From positions 434,001 to 498,000 of the forward strand of contig NZ_JAZGLW010000001.1 of the NCBI RefSeq assembly GCF_036409155.1: 64,000 nt of DNA, read 5' to 3'. Every line of letters begins with the position of its first letter. Within the stretch, counting starts at the first letter, position 1. Positions 43,380-54,041 of this stretch are shown here, in pieces. This DNA comes from Mycobacterium sp. 050128. GTDB lineage: Bacteria; Actinomycetota; Actinomycetes; Mycobacteriales; Mycobacteriaceae. The notes under the pieces are model-generated. The model ran no database searches, was not told where the DNA came from, and was given only the letters and a program-made list of their open reading frames with translations. Made by a program: the position numbers and the translations under genes.

Positions 43380-43912
<533 letters not shown>

Positions 43913-44356: not shown

Positions 44357-44637
44357 AGCGCTTACCTTCTCTTCTCTCGGGTGGATCCCGGTTCGAGCCG
44401 GGTGCCGGTCAAGGCGGCCCTGGTGGGTCTGCGGTTGGGGTTTGGTCTCGGCGACCGACATTGACCCGAGTCCCCGGCGTACCGCACGCCAACAGAGCAG
44501 CTTACCGACCCACATCCCCGCAGGTCAAAATGACTGTGTGGTCCCAGGGCTCTGCCAGGTCCGCAGGCGAGGCGCACGTGAGCCTTGCGTTACCACGCTT
44601 AGGCACTCGTTTGAGGGCGCCAGGTTCAACGGAGGTT

Positions 44638-45120
44638 TCAGCTGCCGAGCATCCTGGCTAAGTGGCTGTGCGCGAGGTGGCCGCCGACTAGTTGCGTGAG
44701 CCTTAAGTGGTCGTAGAAGTGCCACGTCTGTGGGGGGTTGTAGGAGTGTTGCCGCGACCGTAGCTCCTCAAGAGTTACGACATTATTCAGAGCTGTAATC
44801 GCACTCAGGTGGATCGCTACCGCGCGGCAAGATCCGTGGAAATAGTCATCGAACTCCTTTCCGGAAATTGCCGAGCGATGGAGGTAGCGGTGTTTGATCT
44901 TTGACGGCGTGCTCGCCTCGATCGCGCTAACCCGACAAGTCGCAACAACCGCCGCCATCGGGGCCGTTCCATACACGGCGACCGGCTGCCCTGCTAAGAC
45001 GTGGGGTCTCACGCGCCGCAACTCCACTGTCTTGGTGCCGTTCAAGATATCTCGCACATGACGTGGCCGAATCGACAGCAGCATCAGCCTGGTTTGACCG
45101 GCACGGTATTCCTCAGTCAC
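44638..45120 (-). CDS. ASCH-domain protein
   Basis: About 160 residues, nearly all one ASCH (PUA-like) domain: LLSIRPRHVRDILNGTKTVELRRVRP is the characteristic start, followed by PVAVYGTAPMAAVVATCRVSAIEASTPSKI and AVAIHLSAI. ASCH domains are predicted to bind RNA or modified nucleotides. GTG at 45120 overlaps the stop of the PIN gene as GTGACTGA with GGAAAGG upstream; a TTG at 45126 is also possible. It probably acts with the upstream GNAT-PIN-ASCH protein, which carries a second ASCH domain. Substrate unknown. Confidence 0.85.
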   Translation of the reverse strand: MTEEYRAGQTRLMLLSIRPRHVRDILNGTKTVELRRVRPHVLAGQPVAVYGTAPMAAVVATCRVSAIEASTPSKIKHRYLHRSAISGKEFDDYFHGSCRAVAIHLSAITALNNVVTLEELRSRQHSYNPPQTWHFYDHLRLTQLVGGHLAHSHLARMLGS

Positions 45121-47194
45121 TTGCAAGGGCCTTTCCGATCAATTCCGCGAACAGCGCCTTGTCGATCTTGGTAGCGGACCATAGCTGCAGAGTCCGACTC
45201 CTACGCCCCGCAACTCGCCGAAGCCGCGCCAGCGGGACTGGGTGATCAAGCAGCTCGGTGTCGGCTATGCGCAAAGCTCGGACTGTGCCCGCGGGACCGG
45301 CGGCCGCTCTCAACCGCTCAAGACCAAAGACACCAAGCCGCTGGTATTTACGATGCGCGACCTCAGGTGTTAGGTCGCGAACTTCTACCAAGGTGCTGAT
45401 CGCGAATACCGCGCACTGAGGTTGGCTGGCATACCAAAGAACACGCCCGGGAGCCACCTCGCCCGATTTCTGCCCACGGAAGAAAACGTGTTCTCGCCGC
45501 ATACCTAAGTCGGATCGCCGGTCGAATAACTGAGGTGGATACCCAAATAGATCCATTGCATACGCCGGCTTTATCGGCAAGATCCATGTGTCTAAGTCTG
45601 AATCAAGCAATCGGAGGGGTCTCAATTGATGCTCCAACATGTACGTATTTAAAGGTGAGTGATCTTGATTTGCAATGTTGCTCAGCGGCACGATCGCTTG
45701 CCGTTGAACTTCCGTCAGTCTAGTTCGCAACTCTCCTATCCGGACTCTTAACTGGTGTAGCGACATTACAGACCGAATAGTCAGACAAATTAAACCGCCG
45801 CTGAAAGAATGATAACCGTCTTCGAGAAGCGCATCGTAAATGGCGCTATCTAAGTGCCGATCTTTTACAATGATAATCTCCGCTGATTCCTCTGCGGCAA
45901 GCTCGCGAAGATGCCCGACGAGTTGAGTGGCCACGCTGGTCTGTAGCGCACACTGCCGAATTCTTAGAAGCGGCACTTCAAGATTCCCGCCAAGCGGCAC
46001 GGTTCCCAGCAACCCAACCGGCGAGCCCTGAGGATCGCGAAGTAGCAGGCGATGGGAGCTGGGTCGCTTAGCGGCTAGTCCATCGCATATTGCTTGATAC
46101 GTTGTCCGTCTTTCCCCGGCAGCATTGTTGATGAACCTCCCGAGGTCGGCGTCGTCACTACCAGCTTCCCCGAGTTTGTAACCGGTCTCCTTCAACGCTT
46201 GAGGTGCGTACGCCGGGTCGCCTTCGCGCTCATCGAGCAGAGCGGCCAGATTGAAGGGGTTGGTGATGACGACATTCGCCAGCTTCAATGCGGGCGCACT
46301 ACTAAGGCGTGATTTCGCTTTGCGGTCTTCGGAAACAACAATGTTGATGCCTGCAGCCATGGCATAAGCAACATGCCGCACATCGCTCCTGTCCTGCAAG
46401 CTCTTCGGACGCCTAGCTAGGCCCCGCAGAATTTGCTCCTCGTGCAAATTGACTACGGAAGGATCAACCGCCAGCTGGGGATATCCCTGCGCAATACGCA
46501 GCAAGCGCTCACGCTCACCACCATCGGAATGCCGATTTAGTTCGTTGAAGAGTTCCGGTGTAATTAGAATCTGTAATCTGTCCTCGACAGCACTGATAGT
46601 TTGAAGGATGCGCTCTTCGGGGCTGCGCGCGTGCAGCGACAAAAATACGTTTGCGTCGATAACGACGGGGACGCTTGATTGAGCCCCGCCTTGCCACGTT
46701 AACAGGTCATGATGACCGAAGTCGTACCACCAGTCAGTAAGTAGGTGGCCTTCCGCGCTGCGCCCTTTGCGATTGCCGCGGGCCACAAAGCCCAGCTTTG
46801 GCCACGCCTGGTTGGCCGGATAGTCCCGTCGGCAGCGTACAGAGATGCCTCTTCGATCCGGGTAACGTCGACGAACTTCTTCGACTAGTTTCCTCGCTAT
46901 CCCGGTTTTCCGCATATCTTCGCGCACAACTAGATGCGTGATTGCGACGCTCTGGCGCGGCAGACGAATAGCGACGTAGCCCAAGAGCTGCTGGGCCGGC
47001 CCAGACTCAGCCGCAGCATCGCCGCCGACCGCACACACTATGCGCTTTTGGGCTGCATACTCTTCCCATGCTGCGTAGGGCAGCAATCCGAGGAACTGGG
47101 ACTGTGAGTCGCCCAGTTCACGGGCCGCCCGAAATAGATCGGAGTCTGGCGGGGGCGCGCAAAAGCTCAAGTTCGAGTTGCCTCCGCCAAGCAT
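45113..47194 (-). CDS. GNAT-PIN-(GNAT-like)-ASCH multidomain protein
   Basis: A 693-residue protein with at least three recognisable modules. Residues about 30-155 are GNAT-like (AITHLVVREDMRKTGIARKLVEEVRRR; acetyl-CoA loop RKTGIA at 95-100). Residues about 175-315 are a PIN nuclease domain: D180 in VVIDANVFL, E214/E218 in TPELFNEL, D271 in QDRSDVRHVAYAMA and D290 in VVSED form the acidic metal site. Residues about 380-475 look like a second, degenerate GNAT. Residues about 540-670 resemble ASCH (IKPAYAMDLFGY, RVLWYASQPQCAVFAI, PVPLARLRR). PIN plus RNA-binding-type modules suggest an RNase toxin or RNA-cleaving effector, possibly with acetylation; not proven. Confidence 0.85.
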   Translation of the reverse strand: MLGGGNSNLSFCAPPPDSDLFRAARELGDSQSQFLGLLPYAAWEEYAAQKRIVCAVGGDAAAESGPAQQLLGYVAIRLPRQSVAITHLVVREDMRKTGIARKLVEEVRRRYPDRRGISVRCRRDYPANQAWPKLGFVARGNRKGRSAEGHLLTDWWYDFGHHDLLTWQGGAQSSVPVVIDANVFLSLHARSPEERILQTISAVEDRLQILITPELFNELNRHSDGGERERLLRIAQGYPQLAVDPSVVNLHEEQILRGLARRPKSLQDRSDVRHVAYAMAAGINIVVSEDRKAKSRLSSAPALKLANVVITNPFNLAALLDEREGDPAYAPQALKETGYKLGEAGSDDADLGRFINNAAGERRTTYQAICDGLAAKRPSSHRLLLRDPQGSPVGLLGTVPLGGNLEVPLLRIRQCALQTSVATQLVGHLRELAAEESAEIIIVKDRHLDSAIYDALLEDGYHSFSGGLICLTIRSVMSLHQLRVRIGELRTRLTEVQRQAIVPLSNIANQDHSPLNTYMLEHQLRPLRLLDSDLDTWILPIKPAYAMDLFGYPPQLFDRRSDLGMRREHVFFRGQKSGEVAPGRVLWYASQPQCAVFAISTLVEVRDLTPEVAHRKYQRLGVFGLERLRAAAGPAGTVRALRIADTELLDHPVPLARLRRVAGRRSRTLQLWSATKIDKALFAELIGKALASD

Positions 47195-47484
47195 AGGAAG
47201 ACATCGTAATTCGGGATCGGCACGGTCCGTCCCTACATCGCCGTGATTACTTCGCTCGTCCGATGCTTATGCCCAAATACGGCGGAAAGAGGCGGGTCGG
47301 GCAGTCGCGCCCCGCCTGCGACCCACCCGCTCATCGTCGGTGGGTAGCAGGCGGGTGGAGCGACTCACCTCGCCAGGAGCCATCAGCACTGGGACATGAG
47401 GAATCGACACAATCAGGCGACACGCCCGCAGAGCCATCAGGGGAGATACACTCGTGGTACATCCCAATCGGAGGTTCCAAGAAC
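47195..47484. promoter_or_regulatory. Divergent promoter region of the island with a strong hairpin
   Basis: A 290-bp gap between the GNAT-PIN and HIT operons. It should contain both promoters. The main structure is an inverted repeat with 17-base arms (47311-47327 and 47339-47355; one mismatch) around an 11-base loop. A related G/C-rich segment lies just upstream (about 47291). It could be a leader/attenuator, a structured RNA, or an operator. Confidence 0.6.
47311..47355. repeat. 17-bp-arm inverted repeat in the island control region
   Basis: CCCGCCTGCGACCCACC (47311-47327) and GGTGGGTAGCAGGCGGG (47339-47355) pair at 16 of 17 positions with an 11-base loop. It lies about 130 bp before the HIT start and is unusually GC-rich for the island. 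No T tract follows. Function unknown. Confidence 0.75.
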
Positions 47485-48129
47485 ATGCCTACCACTGCAG
47501 GAGCGTTGGGGCTCAACATATTTGACCGGCCGCAGCGTGTGCTCCGCAGCTGCAGGCTCTGCAACATCGAAGCGCAAGAACCGACCATCCACCAATCCGC
47601 GGATGCTTCGGCCGTTCCGTCTCTCGGCTCGTTCATCGCAGGTTGGACTCTCGTGGTCCCTCGCCGTCACGTTCTGGCTCTATCGGACCTAAGTAGCGAC
47701 GAGTGGAGTGGGTTTACTAGCACCGTGAACTATGTCCGAACGCGAATTGAAGGCGCTTACGGCGACGTAATTTCATTTGAGCACGGATCCGCAGGACCGA
47801 ACAGATTAGCAGGCTGCGGTGTCGACCATGCTCACTTACATATCGTTCCGTCTACCACGAATCTTCGGTCAGCGATTGATGCAATCTCGACGACCGTCGG
47901 CCGCTTTCAATGGGAGCCCGCCGAAGGGAAGCCAGAAGCACGGCGATCACTCGACTATCTGTACATCGCCGATAGCTCAGGCCAATGGATTACTTATGGT
48001 GACTCGATTCCTAGCCAAGTAGTCCGCCGCGCCCTTGCCGCTGAGTGTGGTCGCAATATCTGGGACTGGAAAGAGGACCACTGTCAAGATATTGTCGCAG
48101 ACACGCTAAGTATGCTTCTGAACCAATAA
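47485..48129 (+). CDS. HIT-domain (histidine triad) protein
   Basis: A 214-residue HIT-superfamily protein. The triad is DHAHLHI with H115, H117 and H119; C23 and C26 (CRLC) match the zinc-type CxxC of bacterial HIT hydrolases/GalT-like proteins, and SFIAGWTLVVPRRHVLALSDL is the second conserved segment. HIT enzymes hydrolyse or transfer nucleoside monophosphates. The ATG at 47485 follows GGAGG at about ten bases and excludes 74 low-quality residues of the longer frame. First gene of the plus-strand island operon. The nucleotide substrate is unknown. Confidence 0.88.
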   Translation: MPTTAGALGLNIFDRPQRVLRSCRLCNIEAQEPTIHQSADASAVPSLGSFIAGWTLVVPRRHVLALSDLSSDEWSGFTSTVNYVRTRIEGAYGDVISFEHGSAGPNRLAGCGVDHAHLHIVPSTTNLRSAIDAISTTVGRFQWEPAEGKPEARRSLDYLYIADSSGQWITYGDSIPSQVVRRALAAECGRNIWDWKEDHCQDIVADTLSMLLNQ

Positions 48130-48160
48130 TACGTTTCGTCCATCAAAATAGGAGATTCCG

Positions 48161-48910
48161 ATCAGCACCGGCGGCAACAACCCGCCCGAGCCGGTCACGA
48201 CAAATGTCGGCGACCAGGTCACGCCTGCACACCAAGCGACAAACGCCGACGTTAGCCCGGCAACTACACCCGGGTCGACAACGAATCAAGGGGAAAATCC
48301 TCCGGCGCAGAGTGCGCAGAACTCCGTTGCGGCGACGGCCGAAATTAGGACGCACGCTGTGCCCGATTTCGCGCCTAATGAGCCGACGGACGGCAGGCCG
48401 GTAGGCGACTGGAGGAGCCGCTATAACGACCGGCGTGCTCTTGTTCAAATTACCTTGGAGTCCGTATACGTTTTCAGCGTGATGCTGTCATCACTCTTGC
48501 TTCAACTGGCTGTTGTCCTACATTTCCCACAACCCCAAACACACCTGACTGACGCTCAGTGGAATCACTGCTCGCCATTCGTAGTCGCCTATTTGGCCGG
48601 CCTGTTGGGTGGCGCACTTTTTTCGACGAAATGGCTATACCATACCGTTGCACGGGGTACCTGGAATGCTGACCGACTTCTCTGGAGACTATTCACTCCA
48701 ATGCTCTCCGGTGGCGTGGCGGTTGCAGTTATATTATTATCGGCGGGACGAATTATACCCATCTTTGGGCCCGACCTCGTTCGTACTAATGCAGGCGCTG
48801 CAGGTGTGGCAATTTTGGTTGGCTATTTCTCTGACCGCACATTCTCACGCTTGGAGAATCTAGCGGAAAGTCATCTGGGTTCGAGCAAGCACGATGAGGC
48901 TGACGGTTAG
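48161..48910 (+). CDS. Island membrane protein, possible AUC start
   Basis: Two or more membrane segments (VQITLESVYVFSVMLSSLLLQLAVVL, PFVVAYLAGLLGGALFSTKW, MLSGGVAVAVILLSAGRIIPIF, AAGVAILVGYF) follow an N-terminal low-complexity stretch. A GTG at 48359 gives 183 residues. However AGGAG at 48150-48154 sits exactly six bases before ATC at 48161, in frame and 31 bp after the HIT stop, suggesting initiation at a non-standard AUC or a sequence error; that start adds about 66 disordered residues (STGGNNPPEPVTTNVGDQ...). It overlaps the next gene by one base. Family not recognised. A membrane component could act as an effector. Confidence 0.75.
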   Translation: MSTGGNNPPEPVTTNVGDQVTPAHQATNADVSPATTPGSTTNQGENPPAQSAQNSVAATAEIRTHAVPDFAPNEPTDGRPVGDWRSRYNDRRALVQITLESVYVFSVMLSSLLLQLAVVLHFPQPQTHLTDAQWNHCSPFVVAYLAGLLGGALFSTKWLYHTVARGTWNADRLLWRLFTPMLSGGVAVAVILLSAGRIIPIFGPDLVRTNAGAAGVAILVGYFSDRTFSRLENLAESHLGSSKHDEADG

Positions 48911-51366
48911 TGAACCTGGGTTCACAGAACAGGTACGTGTTCGCCGCGCCATCAGGGGAATATACCGGCCTGCCGATAGCTGACATGGCCGACGCTGGCG
49001 GCAAAGGCGCTGGCCTGATGCGCATACCACCGGATTGGTATCCCCCGACGATAATCGTGGGAGCCGGGCTGCATGCATGGTTCGATGCCGCCGACGCGGC
49101 TGCGAAAGCAACTTTGGAACACGCTTTATCCGGCGATGGGTTGGGCGCTGCGCTTAGCCAGTTGGTATCAGTGGAATCCCAGGAGCAAGTCCTCGTCAGG
49201 AGCAGTGCCTTAAACGAAGGTATCGCTGAGCGGGGTGCTTACGAGACGTTCGTTTCCCAACCCGACGTGAATGGAGTAGCTTCCCGACTTCGAGAGATTT
49301 GGGTTGCTGCCCAGCAACTACGAGATGGCGCGTGGATTGCCGCTCTCCTGCAACCCCAAATTGCCGCTAAGCTCGCTGGTCACTTGTCGAATGAGCATCG
49401 AGTAAGTCGAGAAAGCTACGGTTGGCTAGCAACGTTTATTGCTGGCGGGTCGCAGTCGACCGAACGTTGGCGCGTTAGCGGTGACCAAGGTGTGGATGAC
49501 GGGCCCCTTCACTGCTCCACAGTGACCTCACTGACAGCTCAACTCCGTCGCGTGGCAAACTGGTTTAGCAGTAAGCCCACCCGATATCATCTTGAGTGGG
49601 TTTGGGACGGGAATCGCCTGTGGATCGTGCAAGCGGACCCTGTCCATCCCGTTACGGGGAAAAGCCCGGGCGATTGCTGGATTCCGCCGCGCGCGCACGA
49701 AGTAAATTCGAACTCCTTACGGTATTGGGAGCCGGCTGCTCGCCATTTTGAGAAGGTATCGGCATCGCCATGGAGAAAAATTGAGAGTCTACGAGAGTTC
49801 TACCGAGCAGCATTGCCCGTCCCGGAGGTGTGGGCTCTTTCGAATGCGGCTGCTATTGAAATACTAGCCAATGGGGGCACACCTGAAGGGTTACTCAGTG
49901 ATCTTCAAGAGCTTTGCGCTGGGCACATCGTGGTGCGGGTCGACGTGACCTCTAACTTCGAAGGATTGATGTTGCCGAAGATAAACTGTACTAATGATCC
50001 GACAGAGGTGGTTGGATTTCTTCGCAAGGAAACAGGCAGGCTTGTCGGCCAAGGGATTCCTTATCGAAGTATCTGTTTCCTAGCTCATCGCTATCTTCGC
50101 GCTCGTGCGTGTGCATGGACAATTTCGTCTCCCCACTCGTCTGTAGTAACCATCGATAGCTGTTGGGGTTTAGCCGATGGAATGAGTTGGCTGCCCCATG
50201 ACCGATTTATGATTGATGTAGACGGATCAACGATGCAACGTTCGATCGTAGGTAAGCCCTCACTTTACGATGTATTAGAAGACCGCTCATGGGGGTACAG
50301 GGATACGCCGAGCGAATGGATCTGGCGTTCCAGCATGAGTGAGCAGCAATTTGTTAGCGTTGCGCGAGGCGCAAGGCGCCTCGCGGTTCAGGCCGGGGAG
50401 CCAGTACTCACGATGTGGTTTATCGGCCTCCTTGATGGCGCGGACGCGGATTGCATACCGTCGTTTCAAAATCACGAAATACCAGAAAACTCGAACGGTG
50501 TAATTGATGTCAGCCCTACCGCGCTAAGGGCGTCGATTAAAAGTCGCCACGACTTAGCAGCCTTCGACGATCGGTTCACCGCTCAGGATTCCGCGAAGGT
50601 CTTGTTGCTGGCCCCTACATCCGACTTGGTCCGAGATCCGTCATTTATTCATGAAGTAATCGAGGTAGCCCAACGCCGTGCGCTCGCTGTCGAGCTCGAT
50701 GGCAGCCCGCTGTGCCACCCGTTTTATCTTTTGCAGCGCGCAGGCATTCCCGTAGTATGCCGAGGTGTCCGTGAGGCCAAGCCGGTTTCCTTCGGGAAGC
50801 TCGTGCGAGACGCAATTCCGGACCTCATCGCACTAAAAGGCGAGTCGGTGGTGACTTACCGTGCGACTCCCACGGAGATATCAAGGTTGCTAAGAGTCAA
50901 GCTAATTGAGGAAGCAATGGAATTATTTCGGTCAAGCGACCGAGATGCGATTCTCGACGAGATTGCAGACTTGCTAGAGGTTGTAGACGCTTTACGCAGA
51001 AATGCAGGCTTGTCGATCCGCGCCGTAACCGAGCGGCGCAGATCAAAACGAGAAAGCCGGGGGGCCTTTGACGAGGGGCGAGTTCTTGTTGCGACAAGAC
51101 TCGGCCCCGAACCGCAGGAGGAGACATGTCAACTCGCTTTGCCAGTCCTGCCAGAAGGCTCTCGCCGACTCCCGCGATGGCAGGTACAACTCGAGGGCGA
51201 CCGCCTTGCTATCAGCAATATCCCGCCGATGCCGGGTGAAGCGGCTTCGTTTGTCGTTGAGACGGCTAGCGGTGCTCGCTTGGCAGTCGAGTATGCCACT
51301 GACGGCGTTGTGGTCACTCTAGACTCCAAGCCAATACAACCTGATCAACCGACGCTGTTCCAGTGA
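48910..51366 (+). CDS. PEP-synthase-like protein fused to a MazG-like NTP pyrophosphatase
   Basis: An 818-residue fusion. The N-terminal part resembles PEP-synthase/PPDK ATP-binding domains: GGKGAGL (30-36), VLVRSSALNEGIAERGAYETF (95-114) and EWVWDGNRLWIVQADP (229-244). H603, in CHPFYLLQRAGIPVVCRG, sits in a phosphohistidine-swivel-like context. From K630 (KLVRDAIPDLIALKGESV) to about 720 it is a MazG-like/COG4997-type pyrophosphatase with acidic EEAMELF and DEIADLLEVVDALRR. A further about 95 residues are unknown. It might phosphorylate and then hydrolyse a nucleotide, but no reaction is known. GTG start overlapping the upstream stop by one base. Confidence 0.82.
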   Translation: MNLGSQNRYVFAAPSGEYTGLPIADMADAGGKGAGLMRIPPDWYPPTIIVGAGLHAWFDAADAAAKATLEHALSGDGLGAALSQLVSVESQEQVLVRSSALNEGIAERGAYETFVSQPDVNGVASRLREIWVAAQQLRDGAWIAALLQPQIAAKLAGHLSNEHRVSRESYGWLATFIAGGSQSTERWRVSGDQGVDDGPLHCSTVTSLTAQLRRVANWFSSKPTRYHLEWVWDGNRLWIVQADPVHPVTGKSPGDCWIPPRAHEVNSNSLRYWEPAARHFEKVSASPWRKIESLREFYRAALPVPEVWALSNAAAIEILANGGTPEGLLSDLQELCAGHIVVRVDVTSNFEGLMLPKINCTNDPTEVVGFLRKETGRLVGQGIPYRSICFLAHRYLRARACAWTISSPHSSVVTIDSCWGLADGMSWLPHDRFMIDVDGSTMQRSIVGKPSLYDVLEDRSWGYRDTPSEWIWRSSMSEQQFVSVARGARRLAVQAGEPVLTMWFIGLLDGADADCIPSFQNHEIPENSNGVIDVSPTALRASIKSRHDLAAFDDRFTAQDSAKVLLLAPTSDLVRDPSFIHEVIEVAQRRALAVELDGSPLCHPFYLLQRAGIPVVCRGVREAKPVSFGKLVRDAIPDLIALKGESVVTYRATPTEISRLLRVKLIEEAMELFRSSDRDAILDEIADLLEVVDALRRNAGLSIRAVTERRRSKRESRGAFDEGRVLVATRLGPEPQEETCQLALPVLPEGSRRLPRWQVQLEGDRLAISNIPPMPGEAASFVVETASGARLAVEYATDGVVVTLDSKPIQPDQPTLFQ

Positions 51367-51377
51367 TAGGGGACCGG

Positions 51378-51626
51378 GTGAAAACCATCATCCATGTCAA
51401 TCAGCACAAAGTTCGCGCGAAGCATCCTGCACCTTTAACGGTCAAAACCTACAAGTCCAACAGCGAGGCAAACCATATCGACATTGTGGTTGATGGCCGT
51501 GTAGTGGCGACTGTGAAATACCAGCCTGACAAGCCGCTTTCCTGCGGTGCACGAGTATGGATAGAGACACAGGCACGCGTTGTGGTTCATGCACCGAACC
51601 AAGAAGAAGCACTGGACGGTGGCTGA
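51378..51626 (+). CDS. Small HVNQH/PDKPLSCGARVWIET-type conserved protein
   Basis: An 82-residue protein (MKTIIHVNQHKVRAK...VKYQPDKPLSCGARVWIETQARVVVHAP). The GTG at 51378 has AGGGG about seven bases upstream; an earlier GTG at 51363 overlaps the previous stop but lacks a ribosome site. The IHVNQH and PDKPLSCGARVWIE segments recall small uncharacterised bacterial proteins I have seen with these motifs, but I cannot name a family with certainty. Last gene of the HIT operon. It may be an accessory or inhibitor of the fusion enzyme. Confidence 0.82.
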   Translation: MKTIIHVNQHKVRAKHPAPLTVKTYKSNSEANHIDIVVDGRVVATVKYQPDKPLSCGARVWIETQARVVVHAPNQEEALDGG

Positions 51627-51752
51627 TGCTGGTCACTGCCGGACGAGACTGAGTGCACTACCAACTTGATCTGAGCCGCAACCGACTCATCGCTTGTGTT
51701 ATCCACAGGTTTTCGAATTCCGGTTCCCGCTGGAAACGAGTAACATTTCCAC

Positions 51753-52619
51753 GTGTCTTCCCACCGCATAGGTCGCTGGGTGGGCCCGGGGGTTTCTGCA
51801 GTGCTCACCACCGCCGGCCTGCTCCTGTCCCCAGCTGCGACGCCAATCGCCTCCGCCTTCGACTGCCCCGACGTCGAGGTCATCTTCGCCCGCGGCACCA
51901 ACGAGCCGGCCGGGTTGGGCCGCGTCGGCGATGCCTTCGTCGACTCGCTGCGCCAGCAGACCGGTCTGAACATCCTGCCCTACGGCGTCAACTACGCCGC
52001 CAGCAAGCTGCAGCTGCACGGCGGCGACGGGGCCAACGACACCATCGACCGCGTCAAGAAGAGCGTGGAAACGTGCCCCAACACCAAGATCGTGCTGGGC
52101 GGCTACTCGCAGGGCGCGTCGGTGATGGACATCGTGGCCGGCGTCCCGATCGGCGGTATCAGCTGGGGCAACAAGCTGCCGCCGCAGTACGCGGACAACA
52201 TCGCCGCCGTCGTCACCTTCGGTGACGTCGCCGACCGCGCCGGCGGCACCCTGCCCAGCCAGAGTGCGATGCTCGGCTCCAAGGCCGTCGACTATTGCAA
52301 CCCCAACGACCCGATCTGCCACGCCGGTCCCGGCAACGAGTGGAGCGGGCACACCGAGGGCTATGTCCCCGTCTACACCACCCAGGCGGCGCAGTTCGTC
52401 GCGTCCAAACTGATGGCCGGCACCGGCCAGTCGGTGCCCGGGTATGGGCCGTCGACGCCGGGCGCTGGCCCCAACACGCCGCAAACGCCGGGGCAGGCAC
52501 CGGGTCCCGGCTCGCCGACCCCCGGCCCGTTGAGCCCCAGCTACGCGCCGCAATCGCCGGCCCCGGCGGCGCCCGGACCTACGGTTCCCCAGACCGACAT
52601 GGTTGCCGCGGTTCACTGA
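51753..52619 (+). CDS. cut3: Secreted cutinase-family esterase, copy 1 (cut3-like)
   Basis: A 288-residue secreted alpha/beta-hydrolase. A signal peptide ([22 protein letters not shown]) precedes [32 protein letters not shown]. The catalytic serine is in [11 protein letters not shown]; the acid is in CNPNDPICH and the histidine in [10 protein letters not shown]; cysteines flank as in cutinases. It ends in a Pro/Gly-rich tail of about 70 residues. GTG start. Mycobacterial cutinase-like proteins are lipid esterases or phospholipases. Next to truA in the same place as Rv3451. Confidence 0.9.
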
Positions 52620-52649
52620 CGCACAGTCAATAACTTGTACTATCGCGGC

Positions 52650-53312
52650 ATGAGCCTTGCCGCGAAAAGATCACGGGCGCATAACTTTTCCTTGTTGGCA
52701 GTCGCCGCACTGGTGGTGGGCGCCGCGCTGGTGTTCGGGTCTCCGCTGATCCCGCGCGCGTTTGCCAGGTGCCCGGATGTCGAGGTGGTGTTCGCCCGCG
52801 GAACCGACGAGCCTCCCGGCCTCGGCAAAGTCGGCGGCGCCTTCGTCAACGCGCTGCGCCAGCAGACCAACCGCAATGTGGGGTCCTACGGCGTCAACTA
52901 CCCCGCTAACGACGATTTCCTGGCCGCCACCGACGGGGCGAACGACGCCAGTGCCCACATCCAGCACATGGCCGAACACTGCCCCGACACCAAGCTGGTG
53001 CTGGGCGGTTACTCCCAGGGCGCCGCGGTCATCGATATCGTCACCGCCGCACCGCTGCCCGCCCTCGGGTTTCGCGATCCGCTGCCGGCCGCGGCCGCCG
53101 ATCACGTCGCCGCGGTCGTCCTGTTCGGGAATCCGTCGGGGCGGGCCGGCAATCTGATGACGGTCCTTAGCACGGATTTGGGCGGCAAGATCCTCAACTT
53201 GTGCAATCCCGGCGACCCGATCTGCTCCGACGGCAACTCGTGGCCGGCCCACCTCAGCTACGTGCCCAAATTGACCAATAAGGCAGCACATTTCGTCGCC
53301 GGCAAGATCTAG
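52650..53312 (+). CDS. cut4: Secreted cutinase-family esterase, copy 2 (cut4-like)
   Basis: A 220-residue paralogue with signal peptide (SLLAVAALVVGAALVFGSPLIPRAFA), CPDVEVVFARGTDEPPGLGKVG, catalytic GYSQGAAVIDIV, acid NPGDPICSD and histidine PAHLSYVP. No Pro-rich tail. The ATG at 52650 (MSLAAKRS) is preferred over one five codons upstream. Follows copy 1 by about 30 bp and likely shares its transcript. Corresponds to Rv3452. Confidence 0.9.
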   Translation: MSLAAKRSRAHNFSLLAVAALVVGAALVFGSPLIPRAFARCPDVEVVFARGTDEPPGLGKVGGAFVNALRQQTNRNVGSYGVNYPANDDFLAATDGANDASAHIQHMAEHCPDTKLVLGGYSQGAAVIDIVTAAPLPALGFRDPLPAAAADHVAAVVLFGNPSGRAGNLMTVLSTDLGGKILNLCNPGDPICSDGNSWPAHLSYVPKLTNKAAHFVAGKI

Positions 53313-53396
53313 CCGCACAAAGATCCGGTCACACTGCGGTCGCGGAGTGGTCACAGCCGTTCACTAGCACCCGCCGAAAATGCGTACCATCGGCTC

Positions 53397-54041
53397 ATGG
53401 GGGTTAGACCGTTCAGCAACGCAGTGCTCGCAGCATTCATGACCATCGGTCCGGCAGTGGCCTTGGCGCCGGTGGCCTCGGCGGGGCCGCCGTGTCCGGG
53501 TGCCGAGGTGGTCTTCGCCCGCGGCCGCGAGGAACCGCCCGGAGCCGGCCTGGTTGGCGATGCGTTCGCCAATTCGCTGCGCGGCAAGACGCAGCTGCCC
53601 GTCGGCGTCTACGGGGTCAACTACCCCGCCGACGTCGATCCGGCCAAGGGCGCCATCGACATGAGCAACCACGTCCAGTACATGGCCAAACACTGCCCGG
53701 ACACCCGCGAGGTGCTCGGGGGTTACTCGCTCGGCGCCGTGTCGGCCGACCTGGTGATCGCGGTGACCCAGCCCTCGTTCGGCTTCAAGAATCCGCTGCC
53801 CCCGGGCATCGATCAGCACGTCGCGGCGGTCGCGTTGTTCGGCAACGGTACTCAGCGGGTGCTCGGCCCGGTCCCCGGCTTCAGCCCGGCGTTCGCCGGC
53901 AAGACGATCGAGGAGTGTGCACCCGGCGACCCGATCTGCAACGGCAACGGTAAGGCGGTGTGGGCGTCGCATCTGCAACCGTCGTACATCGACTCGGGAT
54001 TGGTGGATCAGGCGGCCAGTTTCGCGGCCGGCAAGCTGTAG
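53397..54041 (+). CDS. Secreted cutinase-family esterase, copy 3
   Basis: A third, more divergent cutinase (214 residues): signal peptide MGVRPFSNAVLAAFMTIGPAVALAPVASA, then CPGAEVVFARGREEPPGAGLVGDAF, catalytic VLGGYSLGAVSADLV, acid APGDPICNG and WASHLQPSYI for the histidine. The nucleophile elbow is GYSLG instead of GYSQG. In M. tuberculosis two small membrane genes (Rv3453-Rv3454) occupy this place, so this copy is a lineage-specific expansion. ATG start, convergent with truA. Confidence 0.9.
   Translation: MGVRPFSNAVLAAFMTIGPAVALAPVASAGPPCPGAEVVFARGREEPPGAGLVGDAFANSLRGKTQLPVGVYGVNYPADVDPAKGAIDMSNHVQYMAKHCPDTREVLGGYSLGAVSADLVIAVTQPSFGFKNPLPPGIDQHVAAVALFGNGTQRVLGPVPGFSPAFAGKTIEECAPGDPICNGNGKAVWASHLQPSYIDSGLVDQAASFAAGKL

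What the first reader, a model, noticed from the sequence alone, without database searches (positions are those of the whole stretch)
44638..51626. Seven-kilobase AT-shifted island in the ESX-4 slot: candidate new defence or RNA/nucleotide-surveillance system
Between rplM and the cut3-like cutinase, where M. tuberculosis has ESX-4, sit two divergent operons encoding ASCH, GNAT-PIN-ASCH, HIT, a membrane protein, a PEP-synthase-like/MazG fusion and a small protein. The base composition is visibly lower in G+C (29/60 at 48721-48780 against 48/60 at 43801-43860 in rpsI). A nuclease-type domain, RNA-binding-type domains, nucleotide hydrolases and a membrane protein in tight operons are the usual parts of anti-phage or abortive-infection modules, but I know of no described system with this set. 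Function is inference.
Basis: partly seen in the sequence, partly recalled or inferred. Interest (0 to 1): 0.92.

Follow-up and report, generated by a model that had tools for sequence, protein, structure and literature searches.

The report
Two conserved defence-type cassettes side by side
A foreign stretch in what looks like a mycobacterial genome holds two gene cassettes, one a variant of a predicted defence operon and one a widespread but apparently undescribed three-gene cassette built on an odd energy-using enzyme, which may help bacteria fight viruses or other invading DNA.

Summary
In detail: six ORFs at 44638-51626 in a block of 56.4% G+C against 66.8% outside it. It is not one six-gene system but two conserved modules.

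Left: ASCH plus GNAT-PIN-GNAT-ASCH, a variant of the (PIN)-GNAT-EVE/ASCH operons of Bell et al. 2020 and of PADLOC candidate PDC-M11. The pair stands in 14 of 14 full-length loci of the order and 3 of 3 alphaproteobacterial loci.

Right: HIT, membrane protein, and an 818-aa protein with two tandem ATP-grasp domains, a phosphohistidine domain and MazG. The order recurs in 48 of 49 assessable loci, 12 phyla. Its membrane and 818-aa proteins match no PADLOC model; four targeted paper searches found no description. One clade is tied to a DNA adenine methyltransferase (25 of 52 loci).

The modules usually live apart: 0 of 50 such genomes carry the left family. But all five main families recur in one same-strand array on a Caulobacter plasmid, so the pairing is probably not accidental.

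Best reading: two defence-type modules that can cooperate. Defence is inferred; the mechanism is weakly supported.

The parts
44638..45126 (-). ASCH-domain protein (162 aa from TTG; likely real start 45084)
   Evidence: PADLOC PDC-M11B 1.1e-23; solved ZmASCH chains 7e-11 (names in that call say helix-turn-helix protein, ZmASCH is from PMC5615036 and recall of the entry codes), an ssRNA-cleaving protein per the abstract
45113..47194 (-). GNAT-PIN-GNAT(weak)-ASCH-like protein (693 aa)
   Evidence: Pfam GNAT 3.8e-8 and PIN_3 6.7e-8; profile positions 329-460 to GNAT 1z4e E 0.073, positions 562-657 to ASCH chain 5gus E 0.0016; ASCH partner in 14 of 14 full-length loci of the order
47263..48129 (+). 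HIT protein, CWF19/CwfJ-like (288 aa from listed ATG; likely start 47485)
   Evidence: Pfam HIT 3.6e-5, above cut-off; profile of 38 rows matches CWF19-like protein 1 over positions 39-210, 3.2e-5, behind ordinary HIT proteins at 8e-7; H191, H193 invariant
48359..48910 (+). Membrane protein (183 aa), helical bundle, with conserved basic loop K91..R110
   Evidence: homologue in 48 of 52 loci; invariant D11 R13 G81 K91 W102 D105 R106 W109 R110 P114 G155 F157 D159 in 41 rows; model pLDDT 89.5
48910..51366 (+). PpsM (my name): tandem ATP-grasp 1 (~7-250) and 2 (~270-530), phosphohistidine swivel domain (~540-621, H603), MazG (~628-725), C-terminal beta region (818 aa)
51363..51626 (+). Small protein of a very widespread ~71-aa family (87 aa)
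   Evidence: 6192 homologues, phrog_8676 1e-18; not found in the 52 PpsM loci
47195..47484 (.). Divergent intergenic region between the two operons (if HIT starts at 47485)
   Evidence: gene arrangement; no promoter was tested

Best explanation
The island is a horizontally acquired defence-type insert in the ESX-4 slot, made of two modules. Module A (ASCH + GNAT-PIN-GNAT-ASCH) recognises, and perhaps acetylates and cuts, particular RNA or modified nucleic acid: PUA-like ASCH domains read, GNAT modifies, PIN/ASCH cleave. Module B (HIT, membrane protein, PpsM) is an energy-using nucleotide module. The first ATP-grasp domain of PpsM phosphorylates His603, the phosphoryl group goes to a nucleotide-like substrate held by the second, RPH-like ATP-grasp domain, MazG strips pyrophosphate from an NTP or from the product, and the CwfJ-like HIT protein cleaves or edits the product. 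The membrane protein binds it through its conserved basic loop and stops growth or damages the membrane. In relatives a DNA adenine methyltransferase supplies self-marking; here module A may play the matching nucleic-acid part. Shown: gene sets, conservation, domain make-up, conserved catalytic motifs, clade-wise methyltransferase link. Inferred: defence, order of steps, product, effector role.
For: Order HIT-membrane-PpsM in 48 of 49 assessable loci, 12 phyla. A D12 adenine MTase in 25 of 52 loci, beside or inside the triad in 23 of 25; the two of these that I scanned match PADLOC PD-Lambda-5_B at 1e-112 and 2e-116. On the PpsM tree that label needs 3 changes against 16.2 shuffled, 0 of 500 as low. 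5 of 9 large neighbours, chosen by size, match RM, Hma or PDC-S37 models; integrases, resolvases and transposases nearby. Five-family recurrence on NZ_CP048816.1. Conserved ATP-grasp positions (K32, R97, E229, Q241 invariant; all but Q241 near-invariant), invariant H603 and MazG E667 E668 E671 E684 D687. Left pair: PDC-M11B 1.1e-23; PMC7641849 sections 10 and 24. Foreign composition. Rarity (lower bounds, 2 candidates scored per genome): besides the search centre, full PpsM in 1 of 393 genomes of the class and 1 of 346 alphaproteobacterial genomes.
Against: No phage assay exists. No PADLOC model matches the window's PpsM or membrane protein at E <= 1, and Pfam and NCBIfam matches of PpsM stay under their cut-offs. 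No nuclease or DNA-sensor profile was matched in the triad. The window's clade lacks the methyltransferase and its genome has no PF02086 hit. The modules are apart in 53 of 55 loci seen, a few of these on short contigs. No relative in viral contigs (the second used one short pattern) or, for PpsM and the membrane protein, in phage records. The control neighbour set also matched PADLOC profiles (35 families among 81 proteins, against 76 among 119), so the defence-island signal is modest. Loss of the metal ligand in ATP-grasp 2 rests on a non-significant alignment.
Confidence: 0.42

Rival explanations
1. Two independent defence-type modules that merely landed in the same hot spot; no functional link between them.
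For: 0 of 50 genome handles with PpsM carry the left family, 0 of 13 left-family genomes have full PpsM, 0 of 53 PpsM loci and 0 of 3 alphaproteobacterial left-family loci have the other half as neighbour; defence genes cluster anyway.
Against: All five families are contiguous on a Caulobacter plasmid, the only one of 72,556 plasmid records in which tblastn with PpsM covers at least 80%, although each family is rare in Alphaproteobacteria (1 of 346 besides the search centre; 3 of 362).
Confidence: 0.38
2. The triad is a metabolic or house-cleaning cassette: an RPH-like dikinase with MazG removing non-canonical nucleotides or phosphorylating a small toxic molecule or antibiotic, with a HIT hydrolase and a membrane partner; mobile because it is useful, not because it fights phage. 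This overlaps with the rival above, so the odds do not add to one.
For: Closest folds are rifampin phosphotransferase and PEP synthase; names given by a source say house-cleaning MazG; HIT hydrolases give resistance to microcin C-type peptide-nucleotide antibiotics (PMC7157772, start of abstract in the listing).
Against: Clade-wise tie to a D12 DNA methyltransferase and RM neighbours; residues 271-526 align to an ATP-binding domain where RPH has its drug domain.
Confidence: 0.25
3. Module A is a toxin-antitoxin operon (PIN/GNAT toxin, ASCH as antitoxin or regulator) as proposed by Bell et al. 2020, stabilising the island. It concerns the left half only and can be true together with the others.
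For: Tight two-gene operon, conserved pair, the published proposal (PMC7641849 passages of section 19; sections 10 and 24).
Against: The small ASCH is close to a protein with RNase activity; no toxicity data.
Confidence: 0.3

Closest known systems
(PIN)-GNAT-EVE + ASCH operons (Bell et al. 2020, PMC7641849, passages and sections 10 and 24 seen; Iyer et al. 2013 known only through it)
   Same: PIN, GNAT and a C-terminal PUA-like domain in one protein, with a neighbouring ASCH gene
   Different: Here a GNAT precedes PIN, the C-terminal domain matches ASCH chains rather than EVE, and no AAA_17 protein is among the six
PADLOC PDC-M11 (phage defence candidate)
   Same: ASCH gene matches PDC-M11B at 1.1e-23; the PIN part matches PDC-M11A
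   Different: PDC-M11A match is weak (2.3e-6) and limited to residues 177-334; no paper with that name was found
Rifampin phosphotransferase / PEP synthase dikinases
   Different: Two ATP-grasp domains, MazG fused at the C-terminus; neither the drug domain nor the PEP barrel is among the aligned ranges shown
PD-lambda-5 (Vassallo et al. 2022, PMC9519451, passages seen)
   Same: Two scanned methyltransferases of the coupled clade match PD-Lambda-5_B at 1e-112 and 2e-116
   Different: No PD-Lambda-5_A match in the triad proteins scanned; the window locus has no methyltransferase
CWF19-like / CwfJ proteins (spliceosomal role recalled)
   Same: HIT profile matches CWF19-like protein 1 over positions 39-210, E 3.2e-5
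   Different: Stand-alone ~215-aa bacterial protein in an operon

Membership tests
(PIN)-GNAT-EVE/ASCH operon | adjacent gene with ASCH domain | tested here: met
   (Pfam ASCH itself stays under cut-off)
(PIN)-GNAT-EVE/ASCH operon | PIN domain | tested here: met
   PIN_3 6.7e-8, above Pfam cut-off
(PIN)-GNAT-EVE/ASCH operon | GNAT domain between PIN and the C-terminal domain | tested here: inconclusive
   profile match to 1z4e over 329-460 at E 0.073 only
(PIN)-GNAT-EVE/ASCH operon | C-terminal EVE domain | tested here: inconclusive
   no EVE Pfam hit; match to ASCH chains, E 0.0016; PMC7641849 puts EVE and ASCH in one superfamily
(PIN)-GNAT-EVE/ASCH operon | PIN at the N-terminus when present | tested here: not met
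   a GNAT domain (68-142) precedes PIN (177-292)
PADLOC PDC-M11 | both PDC-M11A and PDC-M11B | tested here: inconclusive
   B strong, A weak and partial
RPH/PEP-synthase-like dikinase | ATP-grasp with nucleotide-binding K/R and metal-binding E, Q (motif roles recalled) | tested here: met
   K32, R97, E229, Q241 invariant in 20 rows and aligned to an RPH-like protein
RPH/PEP-synthase-like dikinase | swivelling domain with catalytic His | tested here: met
   H603 invariant in 71 rows, aligned range of RPH reaches residue 620; residue-level superposition and activity not tested
RPH/PEP-synthase-like dikinase | rifampin-binding domain or PEP-binding TIM barrel | tested here: inconclusive
   not visible in the ranges; residues 271-526 align to an ATP-binding domain
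MazG superfamily | EExxE..ExxD metal motif (recalled) | tested here: met
   E667 E668 E671 E684 D687 invariant in 71 rows
HIT superfamily | HxHxH motif (recalled) | tested here: met
   H191, H193 invariant, first His variable in some members; Pfam HIT above cut-off
Restriction-modification system | DNA methyltransferase | tested here: not met
   no PF02086 match in the window genome, other methyltransferase classes not searched genome-wide; present in 25 of 52 relatives' loci
Restriction-modification system | restriction nuclease | tested here: inconclusive
   no nuclease profile of note in the triad
Thoeris with HIT protein (PADLOC ThsC) | ThsC HIT match with a TIR partner | tested here: not met
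   ThsC2 E 0.051 for the window HIT, 1.5e-4 for the HIT of L028, generic HIT likeness; no TIR match in the six proteins
Validated anti-phage system | protection against phage | not testable with these tools
   needs an experiment

The most novel reading that the evidence does not exclude
The HIT-membrane-PpsM triad is a new class of bacterial immune core: a phosphohistidine dikinase with two ATP-grasp domains and a MazG domain makes or remodels a nucleotide signal, a CwfJ-like HIT enzyme (kin of the spliceosomal CWF19 proteins) edits it, and a membrane protein executes. It plugs into different nucleic-acid modules: a DNA adenine methyltransferase in one clade, the GNAT-PIN-ASCH/ASCH pair here and in Caulobacter.
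Probability: 0.27. Interest if true: 0.9.

Novelty: new variant of a known kind. Interest (0 to 1): 0.68.

Why it matters
A strictly ordered three-gene cassette in 12 phyla with an unusual enzyme architecture has no PADLOC-DB 2.0 model for its two larger novelties (PpsM, membrane protein) and turned up in none of four targeted searches of open-access papers. If it is immune, it links phosphohistidine dikinase chemistry, MazG pyrophosphatase and a CWF19-like HIT enzyme to phage defence, and gives PIN-GNAT-ASCH operons a defined partner to test. The clade-wise methyltransferase link gives a ready test of self/non-self marking.

Tried and rejected

Paper searches: ten in all; those aimed at the triad are 25, 26, 29 and 140, and none listed a description. 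Supplementary tables could not be searched, so a listing there is possible. DefensePredictor (PMC13092281; passages and section 8) names a MazG domain among predicted systems, architecture not seen. PMC10853773 and PMC12629846 were looked at by passages only.

Dropped rows and limits: of the 52 loci, L053 and L063 are cut inside PpsM and L068 is a fragment; of the other 49, L044 is the exception (weak HIT match, 1.2e-4, in a 763-aa ORF, no membrane homologue). L043, L045 and L061 are near-identical, so not independent. In L038 and L059 the methyltransferase lies between membrane protein and PpsM. The tree left out L053, L060, L063, L067, L068. One search used 49 of the 52 loci (not L045, L053, L068) plus L128, which is the genome of L019, hence 49 distinct genomes; it had no positive control of its own. 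Genome searches scored few candidates per genome (5 in 20, 52 and 119, 3 in 132), so rates are lower bounds; include the search centre among their two hits. In one search, 91 of 397 genomes matched, 14 of them full-length; the rest are mostly GNAT-only or other partial hits. One search tested 9 neighbours chosen for size. Two of 119 neighbours match PD-Lambda-5_A, so at two loci the methyltransferase may belong to a separate PD-lambda-5 (perhaps L030 and L041; not tested). One search ignored ORFs under 90 aa, so absence of the small protein rests.
Full report
What is there. Six ORFs lie between rplM and a run of cutinase genes: on the minus strand ASCH (44638-45126) and GNAT-PIN-GNAT-ASCH (45113-47194), on the plus strand HIT (47263-48129), a membrane protein (48359-48910), an 818-aa protein I call PpsM (48910-51366) and a small protein (51363-51626). 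The block is 56.4% G+C against 66.8% for 7-kb windows outside it (s.d. 1.25%), and GC3 falls from 0.84-0.92 to 0.54-0.69. One relative (L121) carries an EccC-like ESX-4 gene (1178 aa) in this slot, and 5 of 7 other relatives' stretches hold a copy at 47-64%; L125 and L126 do not. The own genome's best match to it is 39% over residues 351-1162, with one piece at 52% over about 250 residues. So the island probably replaced ESX-4. In 198 genomes of the genus no other showed the GNAT-PIN protein or more than the MazG part of PpsM (14 partial hits), at most 5 candidates being scored per genome; named mycobacterial strains elsewhere do hold the GNAT-PIN protein.

Left module. The 693-aa protein has GNAT (68-142) and PIN (177-292) domains, a weak second GNAT-like stretch (E 0.073) and a C-terminal domain that matches solved ASCH chains (5gus and kin) at E 0.0016. 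The small ASCH protein matches the same chains at 7e-11; I identify them by recall with ZmASCH, which cuts single-stranded RNA (PMC5615036 abstract). PADLOC calls the pair PDC-M11 (B 1.1e-23, A 2.3e-6). Bell et al. 2020 (PMC7641849; passages, sections 10 and 24) describe (PIN)-GNAT-EVE operons with an ASCH gene near RM systems and propose toxin-antitoxin or defence roles. Of 397 genomes of the order, 14 (the window's included) have a full-length homologue, all 14 with an ASCH gene beside it; of 362 alphaproteobacterial genomes 3 have one, 3 of 3 with ASCH. The window protein departs from the published order by a GNAT ahead of PIN.

Right module. A scan of the species-genome collection with a 26-row PpsM alignment gave 52 loci. 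HIT and membrane homologues (E < 1e-6) were found in 48 of 52 each. Two loci are cut inside PpsM and one is a fragment; of the other 49, 48 have HIT, membrane protein and PpsM in that order (in two of them a methyltransferase lies before PpsM), L044 being the exception. The tree rows carry 12 phylum labels, many of them of MAGs. Full PpsM is rare: besides the search centres, 1 of 393 genomes of the class, which is Microbacterium sp. K24 = L019, and 1 of 346 alphaproteobacterial genomes.

HIT and membrane proteins. The HIT profile matches ordinary HIT proteins best (8e-7) and CWF19-like protein 1 over profile positions 39-210, E 3.2e-5, further than the others reach; I call it CwfJ-like. PADLOC gives it only weak ThsC (HIT family) matches, 0.051 here and 1.5e-4 in L028. 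The membrane protein is modelled at pLDDT 89.5 with helices 25-53, 65-98, 104-129, 144-156 and 158-174 and invariant K91, W102, D105, R106, W109, R110 around the turn between the second and third. Structure comparison gave only generic bundles. Both have weak homologues in phage protein families, but the membrane protein matched no phage record by tblastn.

Methyltransferase. A D12-class adenine methyltransferase lies at 25 of 52 loci, in 23 of 25 directly beside or inside the triad; the two scanned match PADLOC PD-Lambda-5_B at 2e-116 and 1e-112. On a tree of 48 PpsM rows, 24 methyltransferase rows fall in one 26-row set and the window in the 22-row set without it; the label needs 3 changes against 16.2 in shuffles, 0 of 500 as low. 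The window genome has no PF02086 match. PD-lambda-5 is called a compacted prophage version of an RM+Abi system (PMC9519451 passages). This is the best hint that the triad acts against foreign nucleic acid.

Neighbourhood. Of 9 large neighbours chosen by size, 5 match type I or III restriction enzymes, a type IIG enzyme, HmaA or PDC-S37. Pfam finds integrases, resolvases and transposases. A control of 81 proteins from 12 stretches of the same genomes also matched PADLOC models, so I call the signal moderate.

Do the halves belong together? Mostly not: 0 of 50 handles (49 distinct genomes) with PpsM have a GNAT-PIN-ASCH match (no positive control in that run, but the same query gave 14 full hits), 0 of 13 GNAT-PIN genomes have full PpsM (with G724 as positive control), and 0 of 53 PpsM loci have it as neighbour. 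But plasmid NZ_CP048816.1 of Caulobacter rhizosphaerae carries HIT, membrane protein, PpsM, GNAT-PIN-ASCH (profile comparison 99.7%, 612 columns) and an ASCH ORF missing from the gene table I saw (1.6e-20), all on one strand within 6.4 kb. PpsM is 23% identical to the window's and GNAT-PIN-ASCH 24% over 291 residues. It is the only one of 72,556 plasmid records in which tblastn with the window's PpsM covers at least 80%. So 2 of 55 loci seen have the pair adjacent. Given how rare each family is, I take this as evidence of an optional partnership, not proof. An annotated class I methyltransferase stands upstream of the Caulobacter block.

Small protein. The 87-aa ORF belongs to a family with 6192 homologues and was not found in the 52 PpsM loci. 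Two of its listed homologues have a longest contig equal to that of two PpsM homologues (23264 and 20456), which may be linkage or chance, as the rejected 7378 case shows. I treat it as accessory.

Mechanism and judgement. The most likely reading is defence by a nucleotide-centred core with exchangeable nucleic-acid modules; the chemistry of each step is inferred from domain families. Confidence 0.42 for the paired reading, 0.38 for two unlinked defence-type modules.

Noticed in passing
44400-51750: The ESX-4 EccC gene that most examined relatives carry near rplM is missing here, and no close copy is found elsewhere in the genome (best 39% over a long stretch).
   Followed up: partly
51363-51626: The small 87-aa ORF belongs to a family of over six thousand members with no known function (phrog_8676).
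   Followed up: partly
L179:13509-13967: An ASCH ORF on the Caulobacter plasmid is not in the gene table shown for that record.
   Followed up: yes
L044:6807-9098: In a Desulfovibrio MAG the triad is altered: a 763-aa ORF with a weak HIT match stands upstream and no membrane homologue is found.
   Followed up: partly
L045: A contig of a Bacteroidetes MAG carries a PpsM identical to that of a Nitrosomonas MAG, perhaps a binning error.
   Followed up: no
51753-54041: Three cutinase-like genes in tandem follow the island.
   Followed up: no
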